64,000 nt of DNA, taken from the NCBI GenBank assembly GCA_951828535.1, contig OX639990.1, positions 1,971,300 through 2,035,299 on the forward strand. The letters are read 5' to 3'. The DNA comes from an uncultured Candidatus Entotheonella sp. (lineage in GTDB: Bacteria; Tectomicrobia; Entotheonellia; Entotheonellales; Entotheonellaceae). This document shows positions 15,343 through 33,320 of the stretch, piece after piece. The notes under the pieces were generated by a model, which saw only the letters and a program-made list of their open reading frames with translations, was not told where the DNA came from and searched no databases. How positions within the stretch are numbered: the first letter of the stretch is position 1; each line of letters opens with the position of its first letter. The translations under genes were made by a program, and so were the position numbers.

Positions 15343-17283
15343 ATGACCGGAGTTTGTGTGCGGCGCTTCATACTCTGCCTGTGGTGGGCGGCGGTGCCGG
15401 GGCTGGTGGGGGCCGAGGTGACGATCGAGGCGCGGCTGGGGCTGCAGGAGACGGTACGGCTGGAGAAGTGGAACCAGGTCATCGTGCGGCTGCACAACAA
15501 CGGCGCGCCGGTAGCCGGTACGCTGGGCGTACGGGTGTGGCGTGGAAGCGAGATACGGGGGGATTTGCACGTCACCAGCTTCACGCAGCCGGTATCGCTG
15601 TCGCACCGGGCGCGCAAACGGTTTACCTTCACGGTGCCGATTACCAGCATCAACCGTCCCATCGAGGTGTTTCTGCGCCGCGGCGAGGAAGTGCTGCAGC
15701 AGCACAACCTCGACCTGCGAACGGCCCTGAGCGCCGAACAGGTCATCCTCGGCCTAACGCGCGACCTGAGCCTGGATTTTCTGGCAACGCTGCTGCCCAC
15801 CCATACCCGTATCGTCTACCTGCCGCAAGACGAATTGCCACAACACTGGTACGGCTACGACAGCGTGTCCGCTGTGGTGCTCAAGGGGTTGTCGCTGCAA
15901 CCCCTGTCGGAAGCCCAGGCGCGGGCGCTGCGGCAGTGGATCGCCGGTGGCGGCACCCTGGTGGTGGCCAGCGATTCGCGCTACGCCCTGCTCACGGAAC
16001 CACGATTGCAGGCGTTGCTGCCGGTGCAGGTGCTCGGCGTTGAGCAGCGCGACGGCCTGCCCGAATTGGCGGCGCATTATGGCGTGCCGCTACAGCCGGC
16101 ACCGCTCATCGCCATGCGAGCGCGTCTGACGCAGGGTGAGGTATGGGTCGGCAGCGCCAATATGCCCCTGCTGGCGCAACGCGCCTTCGGCAGTGGACGG
16201 GTCGTCTTTCTGGCGGTCGATTACGCCACCAAGCCCCTGGCTGGCTGGCGCGGCAACCAAGCCCTGTGGCACGACATGTTGCAACCCGCCGAGCGCATCG
16301 ACTTTAGCCGCGTGTTCACCGAACTCGGGCTGCGCGATGAGCGGCACCCGGCGGTGGAAATCCTGTCGCGCCCGATTCTGCTCTACCCCTCGCACGTCAC
16401 CCTCGGCGCGCTCCTGGCCGCCTACTGCGGCGCCCTCGGCGGCCTCTTTTGGGTCATCAAACGGCGCCGACTGCGCCACGTCGCGGTGGGGCTTGCCGTG
16501 GCCCTGCTCCTTCTGGCGTTCACCGCCGCCGGCTACGGCCTGCTGGCGCAGCACAGCCTGCAACACTCGGCCCTGGCGTTTGATCTCACCACCCTGGAAG
16601 TGCTGCCCGATACCGGCTACAGCCGCTTGCGCGGCGCGGTCGGCGTGTTTTCGGTGCACGGCGGGCGCTACACCCTGCCCCTGCAACAGCCCGAAACGAT
16701 GATGCGGCACACCTTTACGCGCGGCGCCGGGCCGGCCGGTGAGGCGCTCGAGGTCGGAACCGCCGAATCGACCGCTATCCGCCATATCGACCTCGGACCC
16801 TGGACGCTGCGGGTGTTCTCGCTGGAGGCCATGGCCCCAACGCCCGTGCGGGTGCGGGCCGAACGGCAGGCAGGCAGCTTAAGCGTACGGGTCGACAACC
16901 CCGGCGCCCTGCCCCTGCACGCCGCCGCCATCCTGCACCGCGGCAATCCGTCGCCCCTCGGCACCATCACCCCTGGACAGGCCGTATCCGTGGTTCTGCC
17001 CGACACGCCGCAACGGCCCGAACCGCCGTCGCACGAACGCCTGTGGCAGACCGTGTTCGCGCACAGCCCGCTGTCCGGCAGCCGACGCCTCGCCTACATG
17101 CAGGAGGTGTTGCTGCGCCACTATTTCAACGACCGCCGCCTCGCCGACCACGACGCCCCGTTTCTCACCGGTTGGCTCCTCACCCCAAGCACCGTACATC
17201 CCGACGCCGGCGCGCCGCACACCTGGGGTCTGACGCTGCTCGTCAGTCCGCTACAACATCAGTCTCAGAGACCCCCAAAATGA
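15343..17283 (+). CDS. Exported/membrane protein of the MoxR-VWA cluster
   Basis: From the ATG at 15343 the 646-residue product begins with a signal peptide (residues 1-24, ending LVGA). Beta-rich exported domains follow, then a glutamine-amidotransferase-like segment (ALRQWIAGGGTLVVASDS near residue 201). Two transmembrane helices lie at about residues 353-370 and 382-402, and a further beta-rich domain ends the protein. I chose this start because it places the signal peptide at the N-terminus; a reading from 15190 adds 51 residues without such character. The stop forms an ATGA overlap with a permease start whose continuation is now 16 kb away. Its role is probably structural or envelope-related, like other Bat-cluster proteins. 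Confidence 0.8.
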   Translation: MTGVCVRRFILCLWWAAVPGLVGAEVTIEARLGLQETVRLEKWNQVIVRLHNNGAPVAGTLGVRVWRGSEIRGDLHVTSFTQPVSLSHRARKRFTFTVPITSINRPIEVFLRRGEEVLQQHNLDLRTALSAEQVILGLTRDLSLDFLATLLPTHTRIVYLPQDELPQHWYGYDSVSAVVLKGLSLQPLSEAQARALRQWIAGGGTLVVASDSRYALLTEPRLQALLPVQVLGVEQRDGLPELAAHYGVPLQPAPLIAMRARLTQGEVWVGSANMPLLAQRAFGSGRVVFLAVDYATKPLAGWRGNQALWHDMLQPAERIDFSRVFTELGLRDERHPAVEILSRPILLYPSHVTLGALLAAYCGALGGLFWVIKRRRLRHVAVGLAVALLLLAFTAAGYGLLAQHSLQHSALAFDLTTLEVLPDTGYSRLRGAVGVFSVHGGRYTLPLQQPETMMRHTFTRGAGPAGEALEVGTAESTAIRHIDLGPWTLRVFSLEAMAPTPVRVRAERQAGSLSVRVDNPGALPLHAAAILHRGNPSPLGTITPGQAVSVVLPDTPQRPEPPSHERLWQTVFAHSPLSGSRRLAYMQEVLLRHYFNDRRLADHDAPFLTGWLLTPSTVHPDAGAPHTWGLTLLVSPLQHQSQRPPK

Positions 17284-17312
17284 TCCCCATACCCGGCAGG
17301 AAGGCGCTGCGC
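17265..17312 (+). repeat. Left copy of the direct repeat flanking the defence island
   Basis: These 48 bases span the last codons of the exported protein and the first eleven codons of a permease. The matching copy is at 33274-33320. The two differ by one single-base indel and two substitutions. The length and the sparing of both host genes resemble attachment-site duplication more than a short target-site duplication. Confidence 0.85.
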
Positions 17313-17315
17313 TAA
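17280..17315 (+). pseudogene. Eleven-codon stub of the cluster permease
   Basis: ATG at 17280 encodes MIPIPGRKALR and then stops. The same eleven residues open the intact permease at 33288. The stub overlaps the upstream stop as ATGA, which is the arrangement expected in an uninterrupted operon. It marks the point where the cluster was opened by the island. Confidence 0.85.
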
Positions 17316-17605
17316 TCCAAACTGCTTTGACGTCGCGCGAAATGTTCCAGCTATACAAGGATCAGAGCAGGAATAACGGCTCCCCCAGGGGAAACTGTCC
17401 CTCATGAACACAGTCATTGTGTCGAGTCCCCCGCTTGCTAACGGCCCCGCTTGTGTACGATACTGCCCCCAGATTTCCACTCACCCAAATGGACCAGGAG
17501 ATGGGCTATTTCGGTATCGTGGCCACGCTGGTGATCAACAAATGCCAATGCTCAACGGAAACGATGCCGGTCGAGCGCCAGAAAAACACATGGGTGATAT
17601 AGACC
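17316..17605 (+). promoter_or_regulatory. Leader of the defence island with a possible promoter
   Basis: No gene is supported in this stretch. A possible sigma70 promoter is TTGCTA (17435-17440), an 18-base spacer, and GATACT (17459-17464), about 140 bases before the DUF499 ATPase start. This match is only moderate. A GGGTGA at 17592 lies slightly far from the GTG start. Confidence 0.3.
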
Positions 17606-20600
17606 GTGAAAATTGCGACAATATTCGACACCTGCCGACCCCGCTCGGACGTGCTCAAGGGAGCGGTTGCTGAGGCCGACTTCGCGGCGGACCTAGCTCA
17701 GGTCATTTCCGGCAGGGGACCCCAGGAATACCTCAACCCGGCCCGTTTCTTCGCTAATACCTACCCCACCCGGGGCCTCGCCAACCTGCTGCTCAACGTG
17801 TGCCGTCGGCTGACCGGCGCGGGAGGCGAAGCGGCAGCGATCTTTCGGCTTGACACCTCTTACGGCGGCGGCAAGACGCACGGACTGATCGCGCTGGCGC
17901 ATGCCGCCAGAGGGGTAAAAGGCGTTCCCAACATCGTGGAATTCATCGATCCTTCCCTGCTCCCGGAAGGCCATGTGCGCGTTGCCGCCTTCGACGGCGA
18001 GAACGCCGATCCGGCCAACGGCCGGGCCATGGGAGACCGGGTATTGGCGCATACCCCTTGGGGCGAGATAGCCTATGCTCTTGCCGGCAAGGTGGGATAC
18101 GACCGCGTCCGCGCTAGTGACGAAAGCCATGTGGCGCCCGGCGCCGATACCCTGCGGGAGCTATTCGGTGGCGAACCCACGTTGATCCTACTCGACGAGT
18201 TGTCCGTCTACCTGCGCAAGGTGCATAACCTTGCTGACGCCCGCAATCAATTGACCGCTTTCCTGACTTCCTTGTTCAAGGCGGTAGAGAGCACCCCCTA
18301 CGCCGCCCTTGTCTACACCTTGGCCATCGGCAAGGACGGTACGGCAAGCGACGCTTACAATGAAGAAAATCAGTTCATCGCCGACCGCATGGCCGAAGCC
18401 GAAAGCGTGTCCGCGCGCAAGGCGACACTATTGAATCCCACTGAAGAGGACGAGACGGTTCAAGTCCTGCGCCGCCGCCTGTTCGAATCCATTGACGAAG
18501 AAAAGGCCGCCCCAGCCATTGAGGCGTACCGCGCCCTGTGGTCCGCGGGCGGCGACGCGCTTGCCCCCGAGGCTTCGCGTCCGGAAACCGTCGAGGCGTT
18601 CAGAGCGAGCTACCCCTTGCACCCAGAGGTGCTGGCAACCTTGACTGGCAAAACCGCGACGCTCGGCAATTTCCAGAGGGTGCGGGGCATGTTGCGCCTT
18701 CTGGGGCGCACGCTGGCGCATCTGTGGGAAGAAAGGCCCGCTGACGCCACCGCCATACACCTGCACCATATCGATCCGGGGCATGAACCCATCCGCCAGG
18801 AAATCGTCACGCGTCTCGGCCAGACGGCATACGTGCCGGCCATCGCCAACGATGTTTCCGGTTCCGGCTCAAAGGCGCTGGCTCAGGAAATCGACGCCGA
18901 ATGTCATGGCGGCCTGCCGCCGTATGCCGCCTACGTTGCCCGTACCATCTTCCTGCACACCCTCGCCTTCAACGAACCGCTCAAAGGCCTGCCGGGCGAG
19001 CGGCTTCGTTTCTCCGCCGTCGGCCCGGGGCTGGACATCAGCTTCATCGAGGAAGCGCGCAAGAAATTCATCGCCGATTCCGCCTATCTCGACGACCGGC
19101 CTGGCGCTCCGATGCGCTTTCTGGCCGAGGCCAACCTGCGCCAGATCATTCGACGCGAGGAGCAGCACGTCGATGCCGGCGAGGCACGCAGCGAGCTCAA
19201 CGACCGTATCCGGGACATCTTCAAAGGCAAAACATCAGGTGGGGCTTTCGACGCGATCTGCTTTCCCGGCGGGCCGTTTGACGTTCCCGACGAGGTGGGT
19301 GATGGGCGTCCGAAGCTGGTTATCCTGGCCTATGACGGCGTGACCGTCGGCAACTCTGTTGACGCCGTACCCGAACTGATCGGCCGCATCCATGCCCGCA
19401 AGGGCTCCGAAGGCTCCGCCTTGCGGGCGTTTCGGAACAACCTCGTGTTCGTGGCCGCGGCCGATGAGCGCAGGGAAGAGATGCGAAATAAGATGTCCCA
19501 TCGGTTGGCCCTCCGGGAGTTGAAAAAGCCGGAACGTCTCCTCGAACTCGCGGAGCACCAGCAGGACAAGGTGCGTGAACTGGAGGCGCGGTCGGAGCAG
19601 GAACTCGCCCTTGCCATTCAGCATTGTTACCGGCACGTATTCTACCCGTCGCGCGACCGGATGGAGGCAAGCGACGTGGACTTGGCCCATACTGCCATCG
19701 ACATCCAGTCCGCTTCCGATCAGCCCGGCGCCGGCCAACAACAAGTCGTGCGGGTACTGCGCGACCTCCGCAAACTACGGCTTCCCGAAGACCAGCCGGA
19801 TTCACCCACCTATGTGCGTGACCGTACGCCGCTGAAGAAAGGCGAGATCACGACGCTGACCCTGCGTAATGAGTTCCGACGCGACCCGGCCCTGCCCATC
19901 CTGATTGGCGACGACCCGTTCATTCGGGGTGTCAGGCGCGGTATTGAGCAGGGTGATTACGTTTACCGGCGCGGCGAATTGCTGTTCGGCCCGGGTGATC
20001 CGTCGGCCAGCATCGAGATCGACGAACAGGCCGTGGTTTTCACCATGGCTTATGCCAAGAATGCCGGCATCTGGCCGCGCCCACAACCGGGCTCCCCTGA
20101 ACCGGGACCGACCGGGGTAGACATCAGCCAACCCGCAGAAGGAGCCACCGGCAGCGTAGTCGCGGACCCGCCGGTCGACCCAGGCGAAGGCCGCCCTCCG
20201 GCTACGACACCTGACCAGCTGACCGCCGAGGGCCTGCTCAGGGAAGCCTTGGCACAAGTATGGGAACAGGCCCGGGCAAAGGGTATCGGCACCATCGGCA
20301 CGCTGACCATCAGACTATTCGAGGCCGGCGACGCCTTCCGGCTCATGGGGGCCGTGGGGTCGGTGCAGGGCGCGGATAAAACCGTGACGATCACGGGGGG
20401 TTACGAAACCCGCGACGGCGGGTCTTTCGAGTTGGAATTCCGGGGGCCGCCGTTGGACGCGCAGCCGGTCAGGGAATTTCTGGAACCGCAGTTGCGCGAC
20501 GCCAGTTCACAGAACCTCCAGGCCGGGTTCGAACTGGTTTTCAGCGACGGACTTGTCATGCAAGGTGACACCGCAGAGAAGCTGACCGAGCGGCTAGCCC

Positions 20601-20653
20601 GATTTGCCGGCGGGGCTGCCTATGTGTCTGCCGCTGCAGAGGTCAAGGCTTAG
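17606..20653 (+). CDS. DUF499 AAA+ ATPase of an Hma-like defence system
   Basis: The 1015-residue product matches DUF499 (COG1483) ATPases. It has a Walker A variant RLDTSYGGGKTHG (Lys90) and a Walker B LILLDELSVYL near residue 193. A long helical middle follows, and a proline-rich linker near residues 830-860 separates a C-terminal domain. DUF499 ATPases recur beside DUF1156 methylases and PLD-helicases in the helicase-methylase-ATPase type of defence locus. All three components are present here between 17.6 and 33.2 kb. The GTG start fits the family N-terminus IFDTCRPRSDVL; no in-frame ATG precedes it. The next gene starts immediately after the stop. Confidence 0.92.
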   Translation: MKIATIFDTCRPRSDVLKGAVAEADFAADLAQVISGRGPQEYLNPARFFANTYPTRGLANLLLNVCRRLTGAGGEAAAIFRLDTSYGGGKTHGLIALAHAARGVKGVPNIVEFIDPSLLPEGHVRVAAFDGENADPANGRAMGDRVLAHTPWGEIAYALAGKVGYDRVRASDESHVAPGADTLRELFGGEPTLILLDELSVYLRKVHNLADARNQLTAFLTSLFKAVESTPYAALVYTLAIGKDGTASDAYNEENQFIADRMAEAESVSARKATLLNPTEEDETVQVLRRRLFESIDEEKAAPAIEAYRALWSAGGDALAPEASRPETVEAFRASYPLHPEVLATLTGKTATLGNFQRVRGMLRLLGRTLAHLWEERPADATAIHLHHIDPGHEPIRQEIVTRLGQTAYVPAIANDVSGSGSKALAQEIDAECHGGLPPYAAYVARTIFLHTLAFNEPLKGLPGERLRFSAVGPGLDISFIEEARKKFIADSAYLDDRPGAPMRFLAEANLRQIIRREEQHVDAGEARSELNDRIRDIFKGKTSGGAFDAICFPGGPFDVPDEVGDGRPKLVILAYDGVTVGNSVDAVPELIGRIHARKGSEGSALRAFRNNLVFVAAADERREEMRNKMSHRLALRELKKPERLLELAEHQQDKVRELEARSEQELALAIQHCYRHVFYPSRDRMEASDVDLAHTAIDIQSASDQPGAGQQQVVRVLRDLRKLRLPEDQPDSPTYVRDRTPLKKGEITTLTLRNEFRRDPALPILIGDDPFIRGVRRGIEQGDYVYRRGELLFGPGDPSASIEIDEQAVVFTMAYAKNAGIWPRPQPGSPEPGPTGVDISQPAEGATGSVVADPPVDPGEGRPPATTPDQLTAEGLLREALAQVWEQARAKGIGTIGTLTIRLFEAGDAFRLMGAVGSVQGADKTVTITGGYETRDGGSFELEFRGPPLDAQPVREFLEPQLRDASSQNLQAGFELVFSDGLVMQGDTAEKLTERLARFAGGAAYVSAAAEVKA

Positions 20654-21148
20654 ATGGCCCGCGTCGAGAGAATCGCCCGAACCGAAGCGCCAAGCTCGGC
20701 GCCCCGGTATGAATTGCGCGTGCGCCGTCATGAGTCGATTGGCGTCGCGTACGAAATCTGGCAGCTACCGGCAGCAGCGACGCCGCAAGTGACTTCGGCA
20801 TTGCGGATTGCGGGACTGTGGGGCCGCAACCTTGAGCTGGTCGAGTACCGGGTGCTCAAACGGCTTTCGCAGGCTGGCGTCAAGCTGGGTCGGAGCATGG
20901 GTGCCAAGAAACGCGGCCATGCCCTCGACGAAGACTTGGCGCTGACGCTAGGGTTGTTGTTTCGCGCCCTGGCGCCCATGCGCAGCCGAGACAACATGCG
21001 GGCAGTGGCGGAAGGCATCGAGGCCATGGGACACGAGGAAGCGGCCTACTGGCTGGGCATGGCGATGCACCGCAAGCATCCGCGGCGGGTCCTGACGGCG
21101 CTGCGGTTCCTGCTGACCGAACCCAAACCAGGCAGAAAGAAGCCATGA
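20654..21148 (+). CDS. Small partner protein of the DUF499 ATPase
   Basis: The 164-residue product starts directly after the TAG of the ATPase gene, so the two are surely co-translated. It is basic and mostly helical after a beta-rich N-terminus (RYELRVRRHESIGVAYEIW). A central helix pair follows (LELVEYRVLKRLSQAGV), and it ends in a Lys/Arg tail. I recognise no catalytic motif. Small proteins of this kind occur next to DUF499 ATPases in defence loci, so a structural or targeting role in the complex is inferred. Confidence 0.8.
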   Translation: MARVERIARTEAPSSAPRYELRVRRHESIGVAYEIWQLPAAATPQVTSALRIAGLWGRNLELVEYRVLKRLSQAGVKLGRSMGAKKRGHALDEDLALTLGLLFRALAPMRSRDNMRAVAEGIEAMGHEEAAYWLGMAMHRKHPRRVLTALRFLLTEPKPGRKKP

Positions 21149-21216
21149 ACATTTCCTCTGCTCAGTAGAACGGATACCGTGGATTCGAGTTGCAGGCGCT
21201 CAGGAACCGAACCTTA

Positions 21217-21255
21217 TGTGCATTCTGTTTGAAATTAAGTATTTTTGACGTTGGG
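21217..21255 (+). repeat. Left 39-nt imperfect direct repeat around the DUF6236-like gene
   Basis: This sequence, starting TGTGCATTC and ending GTTGGG, matches 22452-22490 at 32 of 39 positions. The two copies bracket the gene at 21429-22451 in direct orientation. They could be cassette boundaries or an old duplication. Confidence 0.6.
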
Positions 21256-21260
21256 ACGCT

Positions 21261-21428: not shown

Positions 21429-22451
21429 ATGAAACGGGACTTCGCATTCTATTATCCTGGACAATACTGGCATGATTCCGATTGGATGAAGAATCTTATT
21501 CTCTTTTTCGATGGAATCTCCATGTTGATTCCAGAGTACATGGAAGACCATGGGTCTTTTGACGACTACGCGATCGTTTCAGCACTGAAGAAGCAGGGCT
21601 TGTTCAACATTATGCGACCAGAAGTAGCGGTCGGGGCAAAGGAGACGGAAGCACTATCGAGGGCGCTTACCGACATCGTCTCGTCTGGTGGCTTGGATCA
21701 TCTGGTTCAAACGACATCCAAAGACAGAGCGGGATCAAGTTTCGGTTCTATTTCCATGTCAAGATTGGGTTACCGGGGGAGTGAAGAACTTGCGGAGGCC
21801 ATCTTCCACCAGCTCAAGGAGCGAGGCTTGACGAGGGACTCTGATGACGGCGTGAGCATTCCGATGCATCGCACCGTGCGTACCTTGATTCTGATATTGC
21901 TTTCGCAAATCCTCAGAGGACAAGGTGAAGAAATGGGCGTGACACTCAGCCCCGTTACAGACCGGTGGGATCTCGTTTTTGCACTTAACGAGATCATTTC
22001 AGTACCCGCCGGACCACCCGGGGTGGGTGAAATCGTGTCGTTCGACTTGGCTATGGTAGGGGTCGACCTCAGTAGTGTACCGATAGATGAAATTCTCGAT
22101 TTTCGCCAACAGAACTATGCGGCACACCGGGACTATCGCCTTTCAATTCTGAAGTTTAGTCATGAGTTGAGTAGTCTGGGGGCGAAAGACCGTGAAGCCG
22201 CCTTCGAACAGCGGCAAGAGGAACTTGACGTGAAGGCACAAGCATTGCGCAGGGTCAATTGGAAAGCATGGAAGAAGCCCGCGACATTTGCGCTTTCGGT
22301 GGCGAGCGCAGTGCGGCTGGTCGAAAGTGGGAATCCCACTTGGGCCGCACTAGCCATTCTGCTGGCGGTACTGGGCCTGATTCCGGAAGGTTCTAAGGAA
22401 GGCAACGTTTACTCGTATCTGATGTCCGCTCAGCGAAAGTGGTCCGTCTGA
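21429..22451 (+). CDS. Hypothetical protein, DUF6236-like
   Basis: The 340-residue product opens with FAFYYPGQYWHDSDWMKNLILFFDGISMLIP when read in full, which resembles DUF6236 proteins (a YYP...W...W.. pattern of conserved aromatics). It has a helical C-terminal half with a hydrophobic pair near residues 290-325 that could be membrane-associated. Its base composition is clearly more AT-rich than the flanking genes, suggesting separate acquisition. AGGAG lies eight bases upstream of the ATG. It is bracketed by imperfect direct repeats and follows a strong hairpin, so it appears to be a separate cassette inside the island. Function unknown. Confidence 0.7.
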   Translation: MKRDFAFYYPGQYWHDSDWMKNLILFFDGISMLIPEYMEDHGSFDDYAIVSALKKQGLFNIMRPEVAVGAKETEALSRALTDIVSSGGLDHLVQTTSKDRAGSSFGSISMSRLGYRGSEELAEAIFHQLKERGLTRDSDDGVSIPMHRTVRTLILILLSQILRGQGEEMGVTLSPVTDRWDLVFALNEIISVPAGPPGVGEIVSFDLAMVGVDLSSVPIDEILDFRQQNYAAHRDYRLSILKFSHELSSLGAKDREAAFEQRQEELDVKAQALRRVNWKAWKKPATFALSVASAVRLVESGNPTWAALAILLAVLGLIPEGSKEGNVYSYLMSAQRKWSV

Positions 22452-22708: not shown

Positions 22709-24190
22709 GAGCCTCTTGCAAAATTCATGAGCAACTGCAGGCTCGGCTACGGAAGCACGAAGCGTCGCCTTGAGCCGCAATAGGCATGAAGGCTTAAGGA
22801 ACGTGCTGCAAGAGTTACCTCGGTGTCCAGTTGGAGCAGGTTCTACGACCTGTGGGCAAGGTTGTCCCCGGCCCTCCATGAGGGCGGTGTTGCAGTGATG
22901 TCGGGCGAACAAGCTCCATCAGAGCGGTGGCAGCAGGTGCATCAGCTGGCTGACCGCCAGCGCAAGGATGCCCAACATGAGGTGGCATAGCACCTTCGCG
23001 TGCCCCCGTACCCGAACATGACGACCGCCGAACTCCTCCTTGAGCCGCGCATACACCCGCTCGACGGTCGTGCGTTCGTGGTAGCGCCGCTGTTCCGGAA
23101 AAACATAGCCAAGAGCGCGGCGTGCCGTTGCTTCGCGCTTGATCGCTTCGCCTCGCCCGCCCGATCCCCGGGGGTTGAAGTCGATGATCGGCACGTGGCC
23201 GAGGTTTCGACTGTAGGCCCGTATCTCCTCAGCGTCGTAAGCTGCGTCCATCAGGTCGTAGAGGTTGTTAACCCGCCCAGCCGTCAGACGTGCCAATGGG
23301 ATGGCTGCTTGTGAGTCATGCAGCGACGCCGAGGTCAAAATACAACTCACCGGCACGCCGCCATCGGCGGCGTCGACGTGCAGCTTGTAGCCGACCCACT
23401 TTTCAAACGCGCCCTTGGCGTTTGTCCGCACTCCGACGTCGCACGGCTTTGGCAACTCGTCCAACATTTGCGGCAGCGTCATGGCTAACTGACGTTGCAG
23501 GCGGGTGGGTTCCTTGGGCCGTTGTTCACCCTTTCGCGGGCGCCCTCGCTGGCGCTTCGTTCGGCGTGCGCCAGGCACCTTCGGCAGCGGCTTTTCACGG
23601 CCCGCGATTGCCGTGGCATCGCGCGAGATATGCCCGACCAAGTGGCCCTTCATCGTCCGCGTAACCAGCGCCTCGTGCAGACGGCTAACCAGGGCGCTGT
23701 CGGCGAATTCGGCAAAGCCGCGTGAGAACGTGGCCTCGCTCGGAAGTCGGCAGGCGCTGCTGAAGCCGCACAGGCGCTGAAGTGTCTGGTCAACCCGCAG
23801 ACGTTCGATGAGGGCCCGCGTCGTCGGGATGTCGAAGACCGCCTTGGCAATGAAGGCGCGCGCCAGTGCGGCGCGATCCTGCGGTGGCCGGCCTGGCAAG
23901 CTGGACATGGACGGCAAAAGGATTTCGAGGCGCACGAACTCGAGGACCGCAACAAAGAGTCCATAGCGCCCGCTCAGGGGGCCAAACTCCATTTCGAGTC
24001 TGGGGAACAGTTCTTGTTGAAAGGCATACCAATAGTTCGATAGAGTCTCGCGCAGGGGCATGGCCGCTCTCCTCGTCATGAGGTCTGTGGAGGACACCAT
24101 GATACTCAGGAGGGTCGGCCTGTCCCAGCCAAAGTCATCCTACTCCAATCTGCAATAAATCCAGTCGTTTCGTAATTCTGCAAGAGGCTC
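22709..24190 (-). mobile_element. Complete IS5/IS1182-like insertion sequence
   Basis: The element is 1482 bp. Terminal inverted repeats of 17 bp with one mismatch begin GAGCCTCTTGCA at 22709-22725 and at 24174-24190 on the opposite strand. The four bases TACT flank both ends (22705-22708 and 24191-24194), giving a clean target-site duplication. It contains a single transposase gene on the minus strand. The intact ends and duplication suggest a fairly recent insertion in the defence island. Confidence 0.88.
22919..24061 (-). CDS. IS5/IS1182-like DDE transposase
   Basis: The product has an N-terminal DUF772-type helical domain (LCGFSSACRLPSEATFSRGF) and a DDE catalytic domain. The catalytic residues are probably Asp in HISRDATAI, Asp in YDLMDAAYDAEEI, and Glu in RTTVERVYARLKEEFGG. 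A basic linker (KRQRGRPRKGEQRPKEP) lies between. I chose the ATG at 24061 because GAGGAG lies just upstream; an in-frame ATG at 24100 adds 13 residues. The gene is intact and lies within inverted repeats. Confidence 0.9.
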   Translation of the reverse strand: MPLRETLSNYWYAFQQELFPRLEMEFGPLSGRYGLFVAVLEFVRLEILLPSMSSLPGRPPQDRAALARAFIAKAVFDIPTTRALIERLRVDQTLQRLCGFSSACRLPSEATFSRGFAEFADSALVSRLHEALVTRTMKGHLVGHISRDATAIAGREKPLPKVPGARRTKRQRGRPRKGEQRPKEPTRLQRQLAMTLPQMLDELPKPCDVGVRTNAKGAFEKWVGYKLHVDAADGGVPVSCILTSASLHDSQAAIPLARLTAGRVNNLYDLMDAAYDAEEIRAYSRNLGHVPIIDFNPRGSGGRGEAIKREATARRALGYVFPEQRRYHERTTVERVYARLKEEFGGRHVRVRGHAKVLCHLMLGILALAVSQLMHLLPPL

Positions 24191-24615: not shown

Positions 24616-25311
24616 ATGCGAATCGAGCCGGAGATTGACGGGATCAGCATCGTCGTGGTTGGGAATTTCAACCCGGCGATCTTCACGCCAAGCTGGTTTG
24701 CATTGTACGGCCTACTCTCGAAGAGTGCCGCGGACAGCGCGGAATTGGGGGTCGCTCACCCGGAGATCACCCACTTCCAGACGGACTGGCTCAAATTGCA
24801 GGTTACGACAGACAAATTCAATGCCGAAACCCAACTAGCTCCTCATGTCCGGGTGCGCGATCTGGTCGTGCGCGTATTCAAGGAATACCTGTATCATACA
24901 CCCCTAAGAGCGTTCGGAATCAATCGCAGCGTCCATTTCCGGGTGCGAGATTTCAGCGCCAGGGACCGGATCGGCAGGAAGCTTGCCCCAGTTGAACCAT
25001 GGGGCGTTTGGGGGCAACAACTGGGCGACAGTGGCCATGAAGGTGGCATGATATCCCTGACCATGAGACAGGTGACCGTCGAGGCAAGGCCCGCTGGTGA
25101 TCAGATCAACGTGACTGTGGAGCCCTCCAATCGCATTCCCGATGGCGCGTCAGGCGTATACGTGGGCGTCAATGATCATTACACGACGGGTGAAGCGGAT
25201 GGGCATGAAAGCAGCGGCCGGCTGATGGAGATCCTGGAACAGAATTTCGACAATTCGGTTGCGTGCAGTGAAGACATCATCGATCACATTATGTCATTGG
25301 CTGAGGGTTAG
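24616..25311 (+). CDS. Hypothetical protein, first gene of an MBL-associated trio
   Basis: The 231-residue product is preceded by a perfect AGGAGG six bases before the ATG. It has an alternating strand pattern at the N-terminus (ISIVVVGNFNPAIFTP) and a central helix with RVRDLVVRVFKEYL. A beta-rich section with SVHFRVRDF and MRQVTVEARP follows, and the tail is acidic. The architecture recalls proteins that compare a query value with a stored one (two related beta sheets), but I cannot assign a family. The next gene begins 12 bases later with another strong ribosome-binding site, so the three genes up to 27008 form an operon. Confidence 0.7.
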   Translation: MRIEPEIDGISIVVVGNFNPAIFTPSWFALYGLLSKSAADSAELGVAHPEITHFQTDWLKLQVTTDKFNAETQLAPHVRVRDLVVRVFKEYLYHTPLRAFGINRSVHFRVRDFSARDRIGRKLAPVEPWGVWGQQLGDSGHEGGMISLTMRQVTVEARPAGDQINVTVEPSNRIPDGASGVYVGVNDHYTTGEADGHESSGRLMEILEQNFDNSVACSEDIIDHIMSLAEG

Positions 25312-25323
25312 GAGGTTTGGTTC

Positions 25324-25929
25324 ATGCTTCACGCGGGACAGTCCGTAGCTGTGGACAGTACGGATGCGTTTGTTGAAGACAGCGGACATAGGTCCGATAT
25401 CGTGACGCAAATGCCGCCTCACGATGCGTCAGCTGCGGTCAACGCTTGGCTGGCACGGGGAAATTACCTCAGCGGATCGTCGCGGACCAGCACACCGGTG
25501 AAACCGGTGCCGGACGCGGACTACACCGGGCGCCCGCAGGGCGCCGATGGCCGCCACCCTGTCATGGACCTGCCGCCGCGGCCTCGACAGATACCATCCG
25601 CCACGTTCCATGCCCTGCAGGAATGGGAAGGGTATGTGCTGGAAGTCGGCGAGGAGGAATTCGAGGCACGCCTCATCGACATGACAGCGCGGGCGATTTA
25701 CGAGGGTGAAGAAGCCACGATCCCTCTGTTGGAAATCTCGGGCCACGATGCCAAGAGGCTCCGTGTCGGCGCAATCTTCCGCTGGGTGATCGGCTACGAA
25801 CGAACGGCGGGAGGAAGCAGAAGGCGGGTGTCCCAGATCGTGTTCCGGGATTTGCCCGCGGTTACGGAATCCGACCTGCGAGCCGGCCAAGAATGGGCCG
25901 CCAGAATGTTCAAGTCGCTCAACCCGTGA
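25324..25929 (+). CDS. Hypothetical protein, second gene of the trio
   Basis: The 201-residue product has a disordered, Pro-rich N-terminal half. A compact beta-rich domain follows from about residue 95 (WEGYVLEVGEEEFEARLIDM, then IPLLEISGHDAKRLRVGAIF), resembling a small barrel that might bind a partner or nucleic acid. AGGAGG lies eight bases upstream of the ATG. Its stop overlaps a possible GTG start of the MBL-fold gene (GTGA), so these two are probably translated together. I know of no named family. Confidence 0.7.
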   Translation: MLHAGQSVAVDSTDAFVEDSGHRSDIVTQMPPHDASAAVNAWLARGNYLSGSSRTSTPVKPVPDADYTGRPQGADGRHPVMDLPPRPRQIPSATFHALQEWEGYVLEVGEEEFEARLIDMTARAIYEGEEATIPLLEISGHDAKRLRVGAIFRWVIGYERTAGGSRRRVSQIVFRDLPAVTESDLRAGQEWAARMFKSLNP

Positions 25930-25934
25930 CGGAC

Positions 25935-27008
25935 ATGAATAACCCTCTGGCCGAAGATGAACTTGAAGTCACTGTCTTCGGCCCCGGCTACGGAGAGAGT
26001 ATTGCCCTGCATGTCGGCGACGGCGCCTGGGTTCTCGTCGACTCCTGCATCAACCCGGATGGCGAGCCGAGAGCCCTGCAATATCTGGCCGGCCTCGGTG
26101 TCAATCCGGCCCAGGCCGTTCGCCTAGTCGTTGCCACCCACTGGCATGACGATCACATTCGCGGCATGGCCAGACTGGTCACCGCCTGCAGCAACGCTGT
26201 TTTCTGCTGCGCCAGTGCCCTCCGCGAAAAAGAGTTTCTCACCTTATCTGGCACCTCCGGACCCAACAGAATTCCCGGCGCCAGCTCTGGTGTTCGGGAA
26301 CTTTACAACATCTTCTCCAGGCTCCATCGAACACCAGAAAAACTGAAATTCGTTTTCGCTGACAACCTAATCTTCCGACAAGGTTCCTGCGAAATCTGGG
26401 CGCTGTCGCCAAATAGCTCGGCATTTTTGAATTTTCTAAAGCAGGTAGGCAGCATCCTGCCCGGGCGGGGCGAAACCAGGCGTCGAATACCCAGCCTCAC
26501 CCCCAATCAAGTTTCCGTTGTGTTGTGGGTCAAAATCGGGGATTTCGCATTGCTGCTCGGCTCCGATATGGAGAGGCCCGGCTGGGCCGACATTCTCAGT
26601 AGTACGACACGACCGACGGGCAAGGCGTCGGTGCTCAAGGTGCCGCATCATGGGTCGGCAAACGCCGACGAACCAGGGGTGTGGCAGGATATGCTGGCAT
26701 CCCATCCTTGGGCCGTGCTGGCACCTTGGCGCCTGGGTGGGCGGAAGCTGCCGCGACAAGATGACGTGCGGCGTGTTTTGTCCTACACGCCGAACGCGTA
26801 TGCCACATCCCAGGGAACTACACTCACCGGAGCCCCGGCAGAGAAAAACCGCACGGTCAGCAGAACGATACGGGAAACCGCCATCAAGCGCCGCTCTGTC
26901 TCCATGTCGACTGATGCGGTCCGGCTGCGCAGGCCGTCTGGAAGCCAGGCGCCATGGCGGGTCGAGCTTTTCGGCTCGGCCTGTGCGCTCCAGCACTTCG
27001 CCACTTAA
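25935..27008 (+). CDS. ComEC-like MBL-fold hydrolase
   Basis: The product of about 357 residues has the metal-binding motif HWHDDH (His69, His71, Asp72, Asp73, His74) and later LLGSDME and KVPHHGS, which match the stand-alone ComEC/Rec2-type metallo-beta-lactamase proteins. ComEC-type MBL domains act on nucleic acid or remain uncharacterised. There is no membrane segment, so it is presumably cytoplasmic. The start is ATG 25935, or GTG 25926 overlapping the preceding stop. It sits inside the Hma-like island, 40 bases before the DNA methylase, so a nuclease or nucleotide-hydrolysing effector role is inferred. Confidence 0.85.
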   Translation: MNNPLAEDELEVTVFGPGYGESIALHVGDGAWVLVDSCINPDGEPRALQYLAGLGVNPAQAVRLVVATHWHDDHIRGMARLVTACSNAVFCCASALREKEFLTLSGTSGPNRIPGASSGVRELYNIFSRLHRTPEKLKFVFADNLIFRQGSCEIWALSPNSSAFLNFLKQVGSILPGRGETRRRIPSLTPNQVSVVLWVKIGDFALLLGSDMERPGWADILSSTTRPTGKASVLKVPHHGSANADEPGVWQDMLASHPWAVLAPWRLGGRKLPRQDDVRRVLSYTPNAYATSQGTTLTGAPAEKNRTVSRTIRETAIKRRSVSMSTDAVRLRRPSGSQAPWRVELFGSACALQHFAT

Positions 27009-27047: not shown

Positions 27048-29984
27048 ATGCCTGAAGACACCCGCCTGATCGAACGCTGGCTGCCGATCGCCGAGCTTGG
27101 CATCGAAAGCACCCGCGAGCGAACGCCCATGACCCCCTTTCCGGCCCCGAACCGCCTGCACGTCTGGTGGGCGCGGCGGCCGCTGGTGGCGGCACGCGCC
27201 GCGGTTCTCGCTTCCCTGCTGCCGGCGGATGCTGACCGCGACAAGTTTCTGCACGTGTTGGGCATTCACGGGGACCCGGTGGCTACTCGGCGGCGGATTG
27301 ACGCGGCGAGACGCCGTGGCGAACGATTCGAGGGACAAGCATACAGTTATCCCCGGGCCTTCGGTTACGTTCCCAGCCAAGACGATAGGGCTTGGGTAAC
27401 ATCCGCTCTACGAAATTCTCTGGCCGATTTCACTGTGATTGATCCGACCGCTGGTGGTGGCAGCGTTCCCTTCGAAGCGACTCGACTGGGGATTAGCGCT
27501 GTCGCGAACGATCTCAATCCGGTGGCAGCGCTGATCATGCGGGCAACGGTGCAGTGGCCTTCGGAATTTGGTTCCCAATTGAAGGCTGAATTCGGCAGTC
27601 TCTCGGAACGTTTCATTCGGATAAGAGAAGAACGCCTCGAACCGCACTTTCCTCCCGAGCCCAAACCCAATGCCATACCCACTAACTTCATTTGGGCGCG
27701 CACCATCACATGCCCTTATTGCGACGGACTGGTGCCGCTGTCGCCGAACTGGCGGCTGGCGCCAGACGGCACCGGCGTGCGGCTCAGGCCCCAACTCGGG
27801 ACCGGAGGGGGGGCGAAAGGCCGGGTGTGCAGGTTCGAGATTGTGCGGTCTGCGAACGAGCAGTCCGCCGGTACGGTGGCAAGGGGCGACGGTACCTGCC
27901 TGTATCCCGACTGCGGGCGCGTGATCGACGGCGACGAGATCAAGTCCCAGGCCCAGGCCGGGCGGATGGGCGAGCAGTTGTTCGCGGTCGTCTACAAGGA
28001 ACGGGTTCTCAGCAAGACCAAAACGGGCAAGACCCGCGAGAAGTGGGTACGCGATTATCGCGCCCCCCGGCGGGAGGACGACAACAGCACCGACATACGG
28101 TCGCGGCTGGATGGGAAACTGCCGGAGTGGGAAGCGTTCGACATGGTGCCGAGTGAGAAGATCCCCGACGGAAACAAGACCGCGGAACCTCAGCGATATG
28201 GCATGTTACTTTGGCGTGACCTGTTTTCGCCGCGCCAACTTATCTGCCATGGCACGAGCGTCGAGGTCTTCCGCGAAATGCTCGACGCCGACCGGGCGGC
28301 GGGCGAGCTGAGCGAGGTTCGACAAGCGGCGTATGGGTATTTGGCTCTCTCATTGGATAAGCTGCTGAACTACAACTCCCGCATGTCAGTCTGGATGCCT
28401 ACGCGGGAGGTAGTCGCAAACACTTTCAACCGACATGACTTCGCATTCTGCTGGTCGCACGCCGAAATGGCACCCCTCATCGCCGGCCTTGGCTACGATT
28501 GGGCCATCGGCCAAACCGCCAAATGTATCGGCGAACTCGTATCCCTGGTGCGTCCCGGAGCCATAGACGCCAACGGCGACCTGTTCGCCACCGCAGACGA
28601 AACCCCGACGATCACCATAACCTGCAAACCGGGGGACAACCTCGACCACATCGAACATGGCAGCATCGACGCGGTAGTCATCGACCCGCCGTACTATGAC
28701 AACGTGATGTACGCCGAGTTGTCCGACTTCTTCTATGTCTGGCTGAAGCGCACCGCCGGTCACGTCTTTCCCGAGCTGTTCCGCCGCCGTCTGACCGATA
28801 AGGACAATGAGGCCGTCGCCAATCCCGCCAGGTTCCAAGGACAAAAGGGCGCCCGGTCGCTCGCCGGCCGGGACTACCAGCAACGCATGGCGTCGATCTT
28901 CGCCGAGTGCCGCCGAGTGCTGAAGCCTGACGGCATTATGACGTTGATGTTCACCCACAAGGCGAGCGGTGCCTGGGATGCGCTGACCGCCGGGCTAATG
29001 GACGCAGGCTTTATCATCACCGCTTCCTGGCCGGTCAACACCGAGGCCGAGGGCAGCCTGCACATCCGCGACAAAGCAGCGGCCAACAGCACCGTCTTTC
29101 TGGTCTGCCGGCCACGACAGCCTGACGGCGGCGGCGCCAGCGACCTCTACTGGGAGGACATCGAACCTCAGGTGGCGCACGCCGTCCGCGAACGGGTCGA
29201 AGCGTTCCAGGAAGCCGGCATCAGCGGCGTGGACCTCTATCTCGCCTCCTTCGGGCCGGCGCTAGAGGAATTCTCCCGCCACTGGCCCTTGCGGCGCGGC
29301 ACACCGCGCCAGGTTCCCGAGGCGGAACGCCGCTCCCGGCGCCAGCAGGCCTTGTTTGAAGTGGCGCCAGACCCCTACGTCGCCACCCCGGAAGACGCTC
29401 TGGACACGGCCCGCCGCGAGGTGAAGCGTTGGCGCCTAGAGCAGTTGACGCACCTCAAGGCCAATGCTGATCTCGACCCGCCTACTGCCTTTTTCGTGCT
29501 GGCTTGGGACGCTTTCAAGGCGCCAGTCTTCGCCTACGACGAAGCATTGCGGCTGGCCCGTGCCGTCGGCGTCGATCTCGACAGGGCGATCATCGGCCGG
29601 ATGGCGGAGAAGAAGGGCAGCAACGTCCAGTTGTGGGACAGCACGCGCCGGGCGGCGAAAGGCACCCTGGGGCCGCCCGACGGCTCCCGCGGCATGATCG
29701 ACGCCGTTCATCACGCCGCCAACCTGGCGCGCCTCCGCTCCCTGGCTGCGGCCCGCGAGATGCTCACCAACGCGCAGGTCGACCAGGACCCGCGCTTCCT
29801 GGCTGCTCTGGAGGCCGTTCTTGAAATCCTCCCCGTTTCCACCAGCATCACCGGTATTGAACTGACGGGAGATGTTGCCGCCGCCGGGAGCGACTTCGAA
29901 GCGCTCTACGGCCTATATCGCCTGGCCTACCGCGACCGGATCGACGAACCCACGCAGCTGAAGTTGTGGCGGGACGACAACTGA
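27048..29984 (+). CDS. DUF1156 DNA methyltransferase of an Hma-like system
   Basis: The 978-residue product has the DUF1156 N-terminus (LIERWLPIAELGIES, then NRLHVWWARRPLVAARA). The SAM motif I is DPTAGGGSVPFEA (near residue 131) and motif IV is DPPYYDNVMYAELSDFFYVW (near residue 546), as in amino-methylases. A short cysteine pair motif (CPYCDG near residue 223) and a further pair (CLYPDC) may bind zinc. Its C-terminal third is helical and family-specific. The stop is two bases from the helicase start. With the DUF499 ATPase and helicase it makes up the core of the defence system, presumably modifying host DNA. Confidence 0.93.
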   Translation: MPEDTRLIERWLPIAELGIESTRERTPMTPFPAPNRLHVWWARRPLVAARAAVLASLLPADADRDKFLHVLGIHGDPVATRRRIDAARRRGERFEGQAYSYPRAFGYVPSQDDRAWVTSALRNSLADFTVIDPTAGGGSVPFEATRLGISAVANDLNPVAALIMRATVQWPSEFGSQLKAEFGSLSERFIRIREERLEPHFPPEPKPNAIPTNFIWARTITCPYCDGLVPLSPNWRLAPDGTGVRLRPQLGTGGGAKGRVCRFEIVRSANEQSAGTVARGDGTCLYPDCGRVIDGDEIKSQAQAGRMGEQLFAVVYKERVLSKTKTGKTREKWVRDYRAPRREDDNSTDIRSRLDGKLPEWEAFDMVPSEKIPDGNKTAEPQRYGMLLWRDLFSPRQLICHGTSVEVFREMLDADRAAGELSEVRQAAYGYLALSLDKLLNYNSRMSVWMPTREVVANTFNRHDFAFCWSHAEMAPLIAGLGYDWAIGQTAKCIGELVSLVRPGAIDANGDLFATADETPTITITCKPGDNLDHIEHGSIDAVVIDPPYYDNVMYAELSDFFYVWLKRTAGHVFPELFRRRLTDKDNEAVANPARFQGQKGARSLAGRDYQQRMASIFAECRRVLKPDGIMTLMFTHKASGAWDALTAGLMDAGFIITASWPVNTEAEGSLHIRDKAAANSTVFLVCRPRQPDGGGASDLYWEDIEPQVAHAVRERVEAFQEAGISGVDLYLASFGPALEEFSRHWPLRRGTPRQVPEAERRSRRQQALFEVAPDPYVATPEDALDTARREVKRWRLEQLTHLKANADLDPPTAFFVLAWDAFKAPVFAYDEALRLARAVGVDLDRAIIGRMAEKKGSNVQLWDSTRRAAKGTLGPPDGSRGMIDAVHHAANLARLRSLAAAREMLTNAQVDQDPRFLAALEAVLEILPVSTSITGIELTGDVAAAGSDFEALYGLYRLAYRDRIDEPTQLKLWRDDN

Positions 29985-29986
29985 CC

Positions 29987-32900
29987 ATGCTCTGCGACCG
30001 CGACTGGAAGCTCAAGTACACCCCCGACGATGGCGATCTCGTACGGCTGTTCTACATCCCTGCTCTCGAAGACGCCGAACGCTACGACCGGCTGACCGGA
30101 TATTTCAATGCCAGTGCCCTGCGGCTGGCGGCGCGGGGCATCGAAGGACTGGTGCGCAACGACGGCCGCATGCGCCTGATCGTCGGCTGCACGCTGGATC
30201 CCGCCGAGATCGAGGCCATCGAAAAGGGCGAGGAACTGCGCAAGCTCGTCGGGCAGCACATGGCCACCCTGTCCCTGGCGCCGCCGGACCAGGCGACATC
30301 CGACGCCTTGGAGCTGCTGGCGTGGATGGTCGGACGCGGCTATCTGGACGTCCGGGTGGCGGTACCCTGCGATGCGGACCGGAGGCCGATCCCGGCGGAC
30401 GGCATCTTTCACGAAAAAGCCGGCATCATCCAGGACCGCGCCGGCGACCGCATTGCCTGGAACGGCAGCCTCAACGAGACAGCCGCCGGCTGGCAGCACA
30501 ACTGGGAGAGCATCAACGTCTATACAAGTTGGGGTACGGATGCGGCCAGGGTAAATCACGAGGACGCCAACTTTGCCCGTATATGGACAGACAAGGCACA
30601 GCGCGTCATCGTGTTGGACGTCCCCGACGCCGCCCGCCAGAGTCTGATGCGGTTCATGCCGAAGAACGACATGCCGGCCCGCCTGAAGCAGGAACCCGAA
30701 ACGAAACTCGTTGCATCTCCCCCTGTCGAGCTGACTGCCGGGCCGACAGGGCCCGAAGAACCGCCGGCACCTGGACCGGGGGACCTGAGAAGCCGGGTTT
30801 GGTCTTTCATCCGGCACGCCCCTTGCCTCCCCGAGGGCGGCGAGCGGGTGGGTGAGGCCACCTCGGCGGTGGTCCCGTGGCCGCACCAAGTCAGAGCTTT
30901 CGAGCGGCTTTACCGCGACTGGCCGCCCCGGCTGCTGATCGCAGACGAGGTCGGGCTGGGAAAAACCATTCAGGCCGGTATGTTGCTGCGGCAGGCCTGG
31001 CTTGCCGGCCGCGCCGGGCGCATCCTGATCCTGGCCCCCAAGGCGGTGCTCAGACAGTGGCAAATCGAACTGCGCGAGAAGTTCAATCTCAACTGGCCGA
31101 TCTATGACGGCCGCAAGCTGGTCTGGCATCCATCGCCGGCGTTGCGTGAACACCACGAGCGGGAGGTGGACCGCGACGACTGGCACCGGGAACCCGTGGT
31201 CATCGCCTCGAGCCACCTGATGCGCCGCCACGACCGCGCCGCGTCCCTCCTGGAACATGCCGCTCCCTGGGATCTGATCGTGCTCGACGAGGCCCACCAT
31301 GCCCGCCGGCGCGCTGCCGGCAGCCCCCAGGAGGGCGGACCCAACGCCTTGCTGCGCCTGATGCAAGGACTGAAAGACCGCGCCCAGGGTCTGGTGTTGC
31401 TGACAGCGACGCCCATGCAGGTCCATCCAGTGGAGGTCTGGGATTTGCTCAACCTGCTAGGGTTGCCGCCGGAATGGTCGGCACAATCGTTTCTCGAATT
31501 CTTCGAGGATGTCGAGCAGCCCAATCCTTCCGCGACGACGATGGACCGGATGGCACAGTTGTTCCAATCGGCCGAGCATACCTATGGCCAGGTCGAAGCA
31601 CAGGACGCCAGTCGTGTAACGGACCTGTCCCCTCTCAAGACCAATAGGGTGCTTCGCGCCCTGCGGGACCCGGCCAGTATTCCCCGGCGGCAGCTGGAAA
31701 CTGCTGAGCGGCGGGCGGCAGTCAACATCATGCGGGCCAACACCCCGCTGCGCCGGCTGGTGTCGCGTCACACCCGCGAACTGCTCAGGCGGTATTTTCA
31801 GGCGGGTATGCTGTCCACCCTGATCGCCGACCGTCGGGTCGAGGACCGCTTTCTCGATATGACGCCGCTGGAACGCGAGCTTTACGAGGCGTTGGAGGCG
31901 TACATCGCCACCACCTACAACCAAGCCAGCGCCAGCGAGCGCACCGCGGTGGGGTTCGTCATGACCATTTACCGCCGCCGCCTCGCCAGCAGCTTCAGCG
32001 CTTTGCGAAACACGCTGCGGAAACATCTGGGCGCGGTTACCACGGGCAACCACGATTTATTGACGGGCCTGGACGAAGACGCGCCGGACGATGGGCTTGG
32101 CGAAGAGGAGGTGCTGGATGCGGATGAGGTTGGAGACCTGGAACGTGAGGCCCTCGCCGCGGAAGAAAGGGCCGACATTGAAGATCTGCTAGACCGCATC
32201 ACCCAGCTGCCGCCGGACAGCAAACTGGCCAGCCTGAAACGCACCCTTGCCGATCTCCAACGGGAGGGCTATGAGCAGGCCATGGTCTTTACCCAATACA
32301 CCGACACGATGGATTTCCTTCGCGGGGAGCTTCAAAAAAACGGTGATCTGAAACTCATGTGCTTCTCCGGCCGCGGCGGCGAAATTCCTTCTGCCGACGG
32401 CGGTTGGCGTCAGATCAATCGCGATGATGTCAAACGGCGCTTTCGTGACGGCGAGGCGCATATTCTGCTGTGCACCGATGCCGCGGCCGAAGGCTTGAAT
32501 TTCCAGTTCTGCGGCGCCTTGGTCAACTACGATATGCCCTGGAACCCGATGCGGGTCGAGCAGCGCATCGGGCGCATCGACCGCCTCGGGCAACGCCACC
32601 CGGTCATCCGAATCGTTAACCTACATTATGAAGACACGGTGGAGACCGACGTCTATCGCGCCCTTCGCGACCGCATCGGACTCTTCGAATCCGTGGTCGG
32701 GCCTCTGCAACCGATCCTTGCCCGCATGCCGCGGACGATTTCGGAAGCGGTATTGTCGAGTGCAAGACGCAGCCGGCAGGAAGCGGCCGACTTGGTGGAC
32801 ACGATTCATCAGCAGACACAAGAGGCGGAAAGAAAGGGCTTCGACCTTGACGCCGTGACCGAGGAAGACCTCGTCATGCCGCCGCTGCCGACCTCACCAG

Positions 32901-33175
32901 TCACCATGGACGATCTCGACAGGGTCATCGGTTCCCTCGACCTGATGCCGCCAGGTACCGACATCCAGCCATTGGGACACCGGGAATACGGTCTGTTGGC
33001 ACCGGGTATGAGGGAGTCTTTGCGGGTGACCACCGATCCCCAATACTTCGACGAAAATGCCGACAGCGTCGAATTCTGGTCACCGGGCAGCCCTCTGTTC
33101 ATCCCACCGGAGTTCGTGGCACAGCACAATCATGTGCCAAGTGTCAGGTCGTTAAAGGATGTTCTCGACGCCTGA
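29987..33175 (+). CDS. PLD-nuclease-like SNF2 helicase of an Hma-like system
   Basis: The product (about 1062 residues) begins with a phospholipase-D-like domain: HEKAGIIQD near residue 136 and GSLNETAAG after it give the HxK...GS motif. A SNF2-family helicase follows, with LLIADEVGLGKTIQAG (motif I, near residue 325), DEAHHAR (motif II), LLTATPM (motif III), VFTQYTDTM (motif IV), LLCTDAAAEGLNFQFC (motif V) and QRIGRIDRLGQ (motif VI). I chose ATG 29987, two bases after the methylase stop; a GTG at 29966 would overlap. It probably translocates on and cuts unmodified DNA, but that is inferred from family relations. Confidence 0.93.
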   Translation: MLCDRDWKLKYTPDDGDLVRLFYIPALEDAERYDRLTGYFNASALRLAARGIEGLVRNDGRMRLIVGCTLDPAEIEAIEKGEELRKLVGQHMATLSLAPPDQATSDALELLAWMVGRGYLDVRVAVPCDADRRPIPADGIFHEKAGIIQDRAGDRIAWNGSLNETAAGWQHNWESINVYTSWGTDAARVNHEDANFARIWTDKAQRVIVLDVPDAARQSLMRFMPKNDMPARLKQEPETKLVASPPVELTAGPTGPEEPPAPGPGDLRSRVWSFIRHAPCLPEGGERVGEATSAVVPWPHQVRAFERLYRDWPPRLLIADEVGLGKTIQAGMLLRQAWLAGRAGRILILAPKAVLRQWQIELREKFNLNWPIYDGRKLVWHPSPALREHHEREVDRDDWHREPVVIASSHLMRRHDRAASLLEHAAPWDLIVLDEAHHARRRAAGSPQEGGPNALLRLMQGLKDRAQGLVLLTATPMQVHPVEVWDLLNLLGLPPEWSAQSFLEFFEDVEQPNPSATTMDRMAQLFQSAEHTYGQVEAQDASRVTDLSPLKTNRVLRALRDPASIPRRQLETAERRAAVNIMRANTPLRRLVSRHTRELLRRYFQAGMLSTLIADRRVEDRFLDMTPLERELYEALEAYIATTYNQASASERTAVGFVMTIYRRRLASSFSALRNTLRKHLGAVTTGNHDLLTGLDEDAPDDGLGEEEVLDADEVGDLEREALAAEERADIEDLLDRITQLPPDSKLASLKRTLADLQREGYEQAMVFTQYTDTMDFLRGELQKNGDLKLMCFSGRGGEIPSADGGWRQINRDDVKRRFRDGEAHILLCTDAAAEGLNFQFCGALVNYDMPWNPMRVEQRIGRIDRLGQRHPVIRIVNLHYEDTVETDVYRALRDRIGLFESVVGPLQPILARMPRTISEAVLSSARRSRQEAADLVDTIHQQTQEAERKGFDLDAVTEEDLVMPPLPTSPVTMDDLDRVIGSLDLMPPGTDIQPLGHREYGLLAPGMRESLRVTTDPQYFDENADSVEFWSPGSPLFIPPEFVAQHNHVPSVRSLKDVLDA

Positions 33176-33273
33176 GCATCCAAAGTCATCCGTTCAAGCG
33201 CCGCTACCAGAGCATCACCGCCATACAGCCCGGCCGCGTTGACGGCGCCCTTCTAACCTGCAATAGCGGTTCT

Positions 33274-33320
33274 TCAGAGACCCCCACATGATCCCCATAC
33301 CCGGTAGGAAGGCGCTGCGC
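33274..33320 (+). repeat. Right copy of the direct repeat flanking the island
   Basis: These 47 bases contain the permease ATG (33288) and match 17265-17312. The preceding 98 bases after the helicase stop (33176-33273) hold no gene. Here the former upstream codons (CAGAGACCCCCA) are kept as a non-coding leader. Confidence 0.85.

What the first reader, a model, noticed from the sequence alone, without database searches (positions are those of the whole stretch)
17265..33320. 16-kb defence island bounded by a 47/48-bp direct repeat that leaves both host genes intact
The end of one cluster gene and the first eleven permease codons occur at both island ends (17265-17312 and 33274-33320) with one indel and two substitutions. 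The left copy completes the upstream gene and the right copy completes the permease. This looks like attL/attR of a site-specific element, yet no integrase or recombinase is visible in between. The boundary sequence is inside an operon and not in a tRNA gene, which is unusual for an integration site.
Basis: partly seen in the sequence, partly recalled or inferred. Interest (0 to 1): 0.8.

Follow-up and report, generated by a model that had tools for sequence, protein, structure and literature searches.

The report
Defence island with recombination-scar repeat ends
A 16-kb phage-defence gene block sits inside a housekeeping operon of a sponge-symbiont bacterium, and the short repeat at its two ends looks like the scar of recombination at a small hairpin repeat, not the attachment site of a mobile element.

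Summary
The repeat is real: 17265-17312 and 33274-33320, 45/48 identical. It is the only direct repeat of 28 bp or more in the window, and its sequence occurs nowhere else in the 3.6-Mb genome. The organism is Candidatus Entotheonella. A family member (G002) has the uninterrupted gene pair, so the island is an insertion. The island is an Hma (DUF499 / BREX-related) system with an IS and no recombinase.

The attL/attR reading is poorly supported. The only same-genus relative (G001) has the same island at the same site but lacks the left copy, and its island ends are otherwise unrelated. The left copy ends exactly in the loop (CGCTGCGC) of a dispersed REP hairpin (51 copies per genome) and continues into that REP's right arm. 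G001's left end carries the other half of such a REP. Island genes differ between the two species by dS 0.49-0.73, host genes by 0.08-0.42, so the two islands were not simply co-inherited. REP loops also coincide with other breakpoints between the genomes.

Best explanation: the island was acquired or exchanged by homologous recombination through the permease side and an 8-bp microhomology join at a REP loop. This duplicated 47 bp without any integrase. Most of this is inference from two genomes.

The parts
15190..17283 (+). Host operon gene with DUF7408/DUF4350 domain, upstream of the island; its last codons and stop lie in the left repeat copy
   Evidence: orthologue followed directly by the permease in G002
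17265..17312 (+). Left copy of the 48/47-bp repeat: upstream gene 3' end plus permease codons 1-11; most likely the native host junction
17305..17325 (+). Loop CGCTGCGC (17305-17312, shared with the permease) plus right arm TAATCC.. of a dispersed GTAG-type REP palindrome: the left junction; 18/21 to the REP half
17606..20653 (+). HmaC-like DUF499 AAA+ ATPase
   Evidence: Pfam DUF499 2e-37, PADLOC HmaC 2e-96
20654..21148 (+). DUF7680 gene
21429..22451 (+). 340-aa unknown gene with an 81% 43-bp direct repeat at its flanks (21213-21255 / 22448-22490), between decayed remnants of a PDC-M38A-like gene
22709..24190 (-). IS element with DDE_Tnp_1 transposase (22919-24100), 12-bp terminal inverted repeats (GAGCCTCTTGCA) and a probable TACT target duplication
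24616..25311 (+). 231-aa island gene, unknown
25324..25929 (+). 201-aa island gene, unknown
25893..27008 (+). Metallo-beta-lactamase-fold protein
   Evidence: Pfam Lactamase_B 2e-7
27048..29984 (+). HmaB-like DUF1156 adenine methyltransferase
29966..33175 (+). HmaA-like SNF2 helicase with weak N-terminal PLD-type nuclease match
33274..33320 (+). Right copy of the repeat, leading into the intact permease; also present in G001
33288..34124 (+). Host 'permease' (278 aa, no Pfam or NCBIfam hit), 90% identical in G001
56834..57072 (-). Second REP in the window, split near its loop by about 200 bp containing another dispersed repeat; intact in G001

Best explanation
The island is an Hma (DUF499-centred, BREX-related) defence locus. 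It entered a chromosome that still had the uninterrupted DUF7408-gene/permease junction, carried on DNA from a related bacterium in which the island already lay next to the permease. On the right it was joined by ordinary homologous recombination in the permease. On the left it was joined by an 8-bp microhomology (CGCTGCGC) between permease codons 8-11 and the hairpin loop of a REP palindrome at the island's left edge. Because that microhomology lies 47 bp inside the region also carried by the donor, the junction was duplicated, giving the repeat and leaving both host genes readable without an integrase. This is homology-facilitated illegitimate recombination, or equally the single crossover of a donor fragment circularised at the same microhomology. 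Shown: the insertion, the repeat, the REP halves at both left ends, the excess divergence of island genes. Inferred: the order of events, the donor, RecA-type recombination and the breakage of the REP hairpin.
For: Empty junction in G002. Same island, same site, same right boundary (CAGAGACCCCC) but no left copy in G001. Left copy ends exactly in a REP loop and runs into its right arm (18/21), while G001's left end is the complementary REP half (18/20, chance about 2e-9). 51 REP copies in each genome against 0-1 in the reversed-pattern control. REP loops at other W/G001 breakpoints: 4 of 46 block ends within 60 bp against 0.3 expected; one REP in the window is split near its loop and intact in G001. 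Island genes dS 0.49-0.73 (n=7) against host 0.08-0.42 (n=19), p=1.5e-6; GC3-matched host genes p=0.001. Both genomes have ComEC and DprA. Published HFIR junctions usually show 3-10 bp of microhomology, and circularised donors give duplications (PMC3240628).
Against: Only one relative carries the island, so the order of events is not fixed. Classical HFIR usually deletes recipient DNA rather than duplicating it. REPs are extragenic and alignments tend to end between genes, which inflates the REP-breakpoint association. Higher island dS could partly reflect weaker codon bias. No tract of donor-like permease could be shown. Ku is absent and competence is untested, as ComEC and DprA are widespread.
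Confidence: 0.5

Rival explanations
1. Site-specific integration: the 47-bp repeats are attL and attR of a tyrosine-recombinase-type element whose integrase was lost or acts in trans.
For: Perfectly placed direct repeats, host genes readable, unique site. Two islands too diverged to be co-inherited occupy the same site in the same orientation. The genome encodes four tyrosine recombinases above the Pfam cut-off and several resolvase-type genes elsewhere.
Against: No recombinase in either island. G001 lacks attL. The core ends at a REP loop, which this model does not predict. No other occurrence of the site in the genome, phage or plasmid collections or viral contigs.
Confidence: 0.2
2. Single ancestral insertion with target duplication: the island was captured once, before the two species split, at a staggered break that duplicated 47 bp. 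G001 later lost the left copy, and one lineage's island was later swapped by ordinary recombination.
For: The right boundary is identical in both genomes. Copy-to-copy divergence (3 of 48) is similar to W/G001 divergence in the permease. Sequence around each island end is rearranged in G001 (REP half at left, triple 233-bp tandem repeat at right).
Against: Needs an extra event to explain dS 0.6 against 0.22 and another to explain why the left copy ends in a REP loop.
Confidence: 0.25

Closest known systems
Homology-facilitated illegitimate recombination (HFIR) in competent bacteria (PMC3240628; proposed for Vibrio T6SS module displacement, PMC5361080)
   Same: Foreign block joined by homology on one side and by 3-10 bp microhomology on the other; no integrase
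   Different: Here a 47-bp duplication rather than a deletion, a 16-kb block, and the microhomology lies in a REP hairpin loop; process inferred, not observed
REP sequences at exchange points of O-antigen clusters in E. coli (PMC3158064)
   Same: A laterally exchanged cluster whose boundaries coincide with REP palindromes
   Different: There REPs lie in flanking intergenic regions; here the join is inside the REP loop and one host gene start is duplicated
Hma system / DUF499-centred BREX-related (Type-2 BR) system (PMC12839542; PADLOC HmaABC)
   Same: DUF499 ATPase, DUF1156 methyltransferase, SNF2 helicase with PLD-type N-terminus; accessory genes embedded within the locus
   Different: DUF3780, the published Type-2 accessory gene, was not found; has DUF7680, an MBL-fold gene and two unknown genes instead
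CIMEs and integrase-less genomic islands flanked by att repeats (own knowledge)
   Same: Cargo between direct repeats with no recombinase
   Different: No related integrative element shares the site; the close relative lacks one repeat; REP-loop junction

Membership tests
Site-specific integrative element / CIME | Direct repeats (attL/attR) at both ends | tested here: met
Site-specific integrative element / CIME | Cognate recombinase inside the element, or a related element with one at the same site | tested here: not met
   None in the window island or the G001 island; site absent from plasmid and phage collections and viral contigs
Site-specific integrative element / CIME | Both att copies kept in relatives carrying the element | tested here: not met
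   G001 lacks the left copy
Site-specific integrative element / CIME | Excision circle or restored attB | not testable with these tools
   Needs reads or culture DNA
HFIR-type integration | Short microhomology (3-10 bp) at the illegitimate junction | tested here: met
   8 bp CGCTGCGC, permease against REP loop
HFIR-type integration | Homologous sequence at the other end of the incoming DNA | tested here: inconclusive
   Right flank runs into the permease and G001 has the same arrangement, but no donor tract was detected
HFIR-type integration | Recipient sequence deleted at the junction (usual outcome) | tested here: not met
   47 bp duplicated instead; duplications occur with circularised donors in PMC3240628
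Hma / DUF499-centred BREX-related system | DUF499 ATPase + DUF1156 methyltransferase + SNF2 helicase | tested here: met
Hma / DUF499-centred BREX-related system | Type-2 hallmark: HKD/PLD nuclease fused to helicase and standalone DUF3780 | tested here: inconclusive
   PLDc_2 below Pfam cut-off but PLD_Helicase and phospholipD_antiphage models hit; no DUF3780 hit
GTAG-type REP | 20-40-bp dispersed palindrome with one-sided GTAG tag | tested here: met
   GTAGGTCGGATTAGCGCAGCGTAATCCGACATTCC, 51 copies per genome; definition in PMC3733652

The most novel reading that the evidence does not exclude
In Entotheonella, REP hairpin loops act as recurrent break-and-join points, and defence islands are gained and exchanged at a preferred operon through them without any integrase, leaving direct repeats that imitate att sites.
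Probability: 0.25. Interest if true: 0.6.

Novelty: new member of a known kind. Interest (0 to 1): 0.42.

Why it matters
How defence islands that lack recombinases move is still poorly explained. This case gives a readable junction suggesting one route: homology on one side and a REP-loop microhomology on the other. It also warns that a flanking direct repeat alone does not prove a site-specific element.

Tried and rejected
Searched for the 47-bp site in plasmid and phage records and for an exact 27-base core in viral contigs: nothing. Looked for a general long-target-duplication mechanism by checking other insertions in about 70 kb of W/G001 synteny: no comparable direct repeats, so a genus-wide duplicating transposition was dropped. 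RAYT (Y1) transposase as the REP mover: none in G000; the two G001 hits are domains inside DUF1156 methyltransferases. Ku-type end joining: no Ku in either genome.

Full report
Observation. They are 45/48 identical with one indel and two substitutions, are the only direct repeat of 28 bp or more in the window, score far above simulated windows (70.7 against at most 37.4 bits), and occur nowhere else in the 3,617,904-bp genome. The left copy carries the ATGA overlap that ends the upstream DUF7408-domain gene; the right copy starts the permease.

Setting. The nearest records are Candidatus Entotheonella and Tectomicrobia; the phylum holds only five genomes in the collection. The host operon is a MoxR/DUF58/BatA/vWA cluster. 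In G002 the upstream gene ends TAATG directly on the permease start, so the junction is natively contiguous and the 16 kb is an insertion.

Cargo. DUF499 ATPase, DUF1156 methyltransferase and SNF2 helicase match HmaC, HmaB and HmaA. The literature places such loci with DUF499-centred BREX-related systems (PMC12839542). Also present are DUF7680, an MBL-fold protein, unknown genes and one IS with terminal inverted repeats. No integrase, resolvase or other recombinase was found.

The relative. G001 (OY282375.1) has the same island at the same site and orientation, with the right copy intact, but the upstream gene ends differently and there is no left copy. The sequence between host and island is unrelated at both ends apart from the shared CAGAGACCCCC boundary at the right.

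The junction. The left copy ends ...GGCGCTGCGC and continues TAATCCAAACTGC. CGCTGCGCTAATCCGACCTAC is the loop and right arm of a dispersed palindrome, GGAATGTCGGATTA-CGCTGCGC-TAATCCGACCTAC, with 51 matches at up to 3 mismatches in each genome against 0-1 for the reversed control. It fits the GTAG-tagged REP class (PMC3733652). The permease's own codons supply CGCTGCGC, so the repeat ends in an 8-bp microhomology between host gene and REP loop. At the same island edge G001 carries GGAATGCCGGATGACGCTGC followed by island sequence, the other REP half, 18/20 to consensus. Both left ends are therefore REPs broken at the loop.

Generality. In the fetched 400-kb stretches, 4 of 46 ends of W/G001 alignment blocks lie within 60 bp of a REP against 0.3 expected; two of these are ends beside the same REP, and one is the island's own left edge. 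At window 56834-57072 a REP is split near its loop by about 200 bp and is intact in G001; another block ends in a REP at A278147/B358809, where A and B are the 400-kb stretches. REPs are extragenic and block ends often are too, so this supports but does not prove the point.

Age. Synonymous divergence between W and G001 is 0.49-0.73 for seven island genes and 0.08-0.42 for nineteen host genes (p=1.5e-6; against GC3-matched host genes p=0.001). The nineteen are the operon and flanking reading frames with dN/dS below 0.5 plus one with 0.79; frames with higher values, probably misread frames, were left out by hand. The change is sharp at the right edge and gentler at the left. The two islands are thus not simply inherited from the species' common ancestor; at least one was brought in or replaced by recombination.

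Mechanism. Island-bearing DNA from a related strain, recombining through the permease on the right and joining at the REP-loop microhomology on the left, gives exactly the observed structure, including a 47-bp duplication running from the donor's right boundary to the microhomology. HFIR junctions usually carry 3-10 bp of microhomology, and circularised donor fragments give duplications (PMC3240628). A similar proposal exists for T6SS modules (PMC5361080), and REPs mark exchange points of O-antigen clusters (PMC3158064). SbcCD-type cleavage of hairpins is a plausible source of the break (PMC8053094) but was not tested here. ComEC and DprA are present; Ku is absent.

What remains open. Site-specific integration is not excluded: two diverged islands at one site is what it predicts, and a lost integrase leaves no trace. 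A single ancestral capture with later replacement also fits with extra steps. More Entotheonella genomes would decide.

Noticed in passing
L094:6846-10430 (-) and L095:6336-10001 (+): Two G001 DUF1156 methyltransferases next to DUF499 genes contain an IS200-type Y1 transposase (HUH) domain match inside the protein (E 2.6e-7, above Pfam cut-off). The main text of the BREX-related paper PMC12839542 does not mention HUH, IS200, TnpA or transposase.
   Followed up: partly
G001 island; reverse complement of L014-L016 at 38951-39008 and 42923-42980: The G001 inner cargo (NsnA-like DUF262 protein and PDC-M38A/B pair) is bounded by a 58-bp copy of the DUF7680 gene end. Two inner junctions (about 41009 and 42883) also carry fragments of the HmaB gene start fused to the DUF7680 end, suggesting collapsed tandem copies of the system.
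   Followed up: partly
window 36712-44998 and L035: A second insertion in the same operon, between MoxR and DUF58, in both genomes with different cargo. In G001 a decayed copy of about 110 bp of the DUF58 gene start lies at its left, another duplicated gene start.
   Followed up: partly
G001 island right end (reverse complement of L014-L016, 51664-52336): Three tandem units of about 233 bp, each holding the end of the HmaA gene and a different REP palindrome.
   Followed up: no
window 45995-46106, 53654-53768, 56876-57004: Dispersed repeat of about 110 bp (CCCTCACCCCAACCCTCTCCC...), in both orientations.
   Followed up: no
window 10142-12316: A further DUF1156/HmaB-like methyltransferase outside the island, on the opposite strand.
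   Followed up: no
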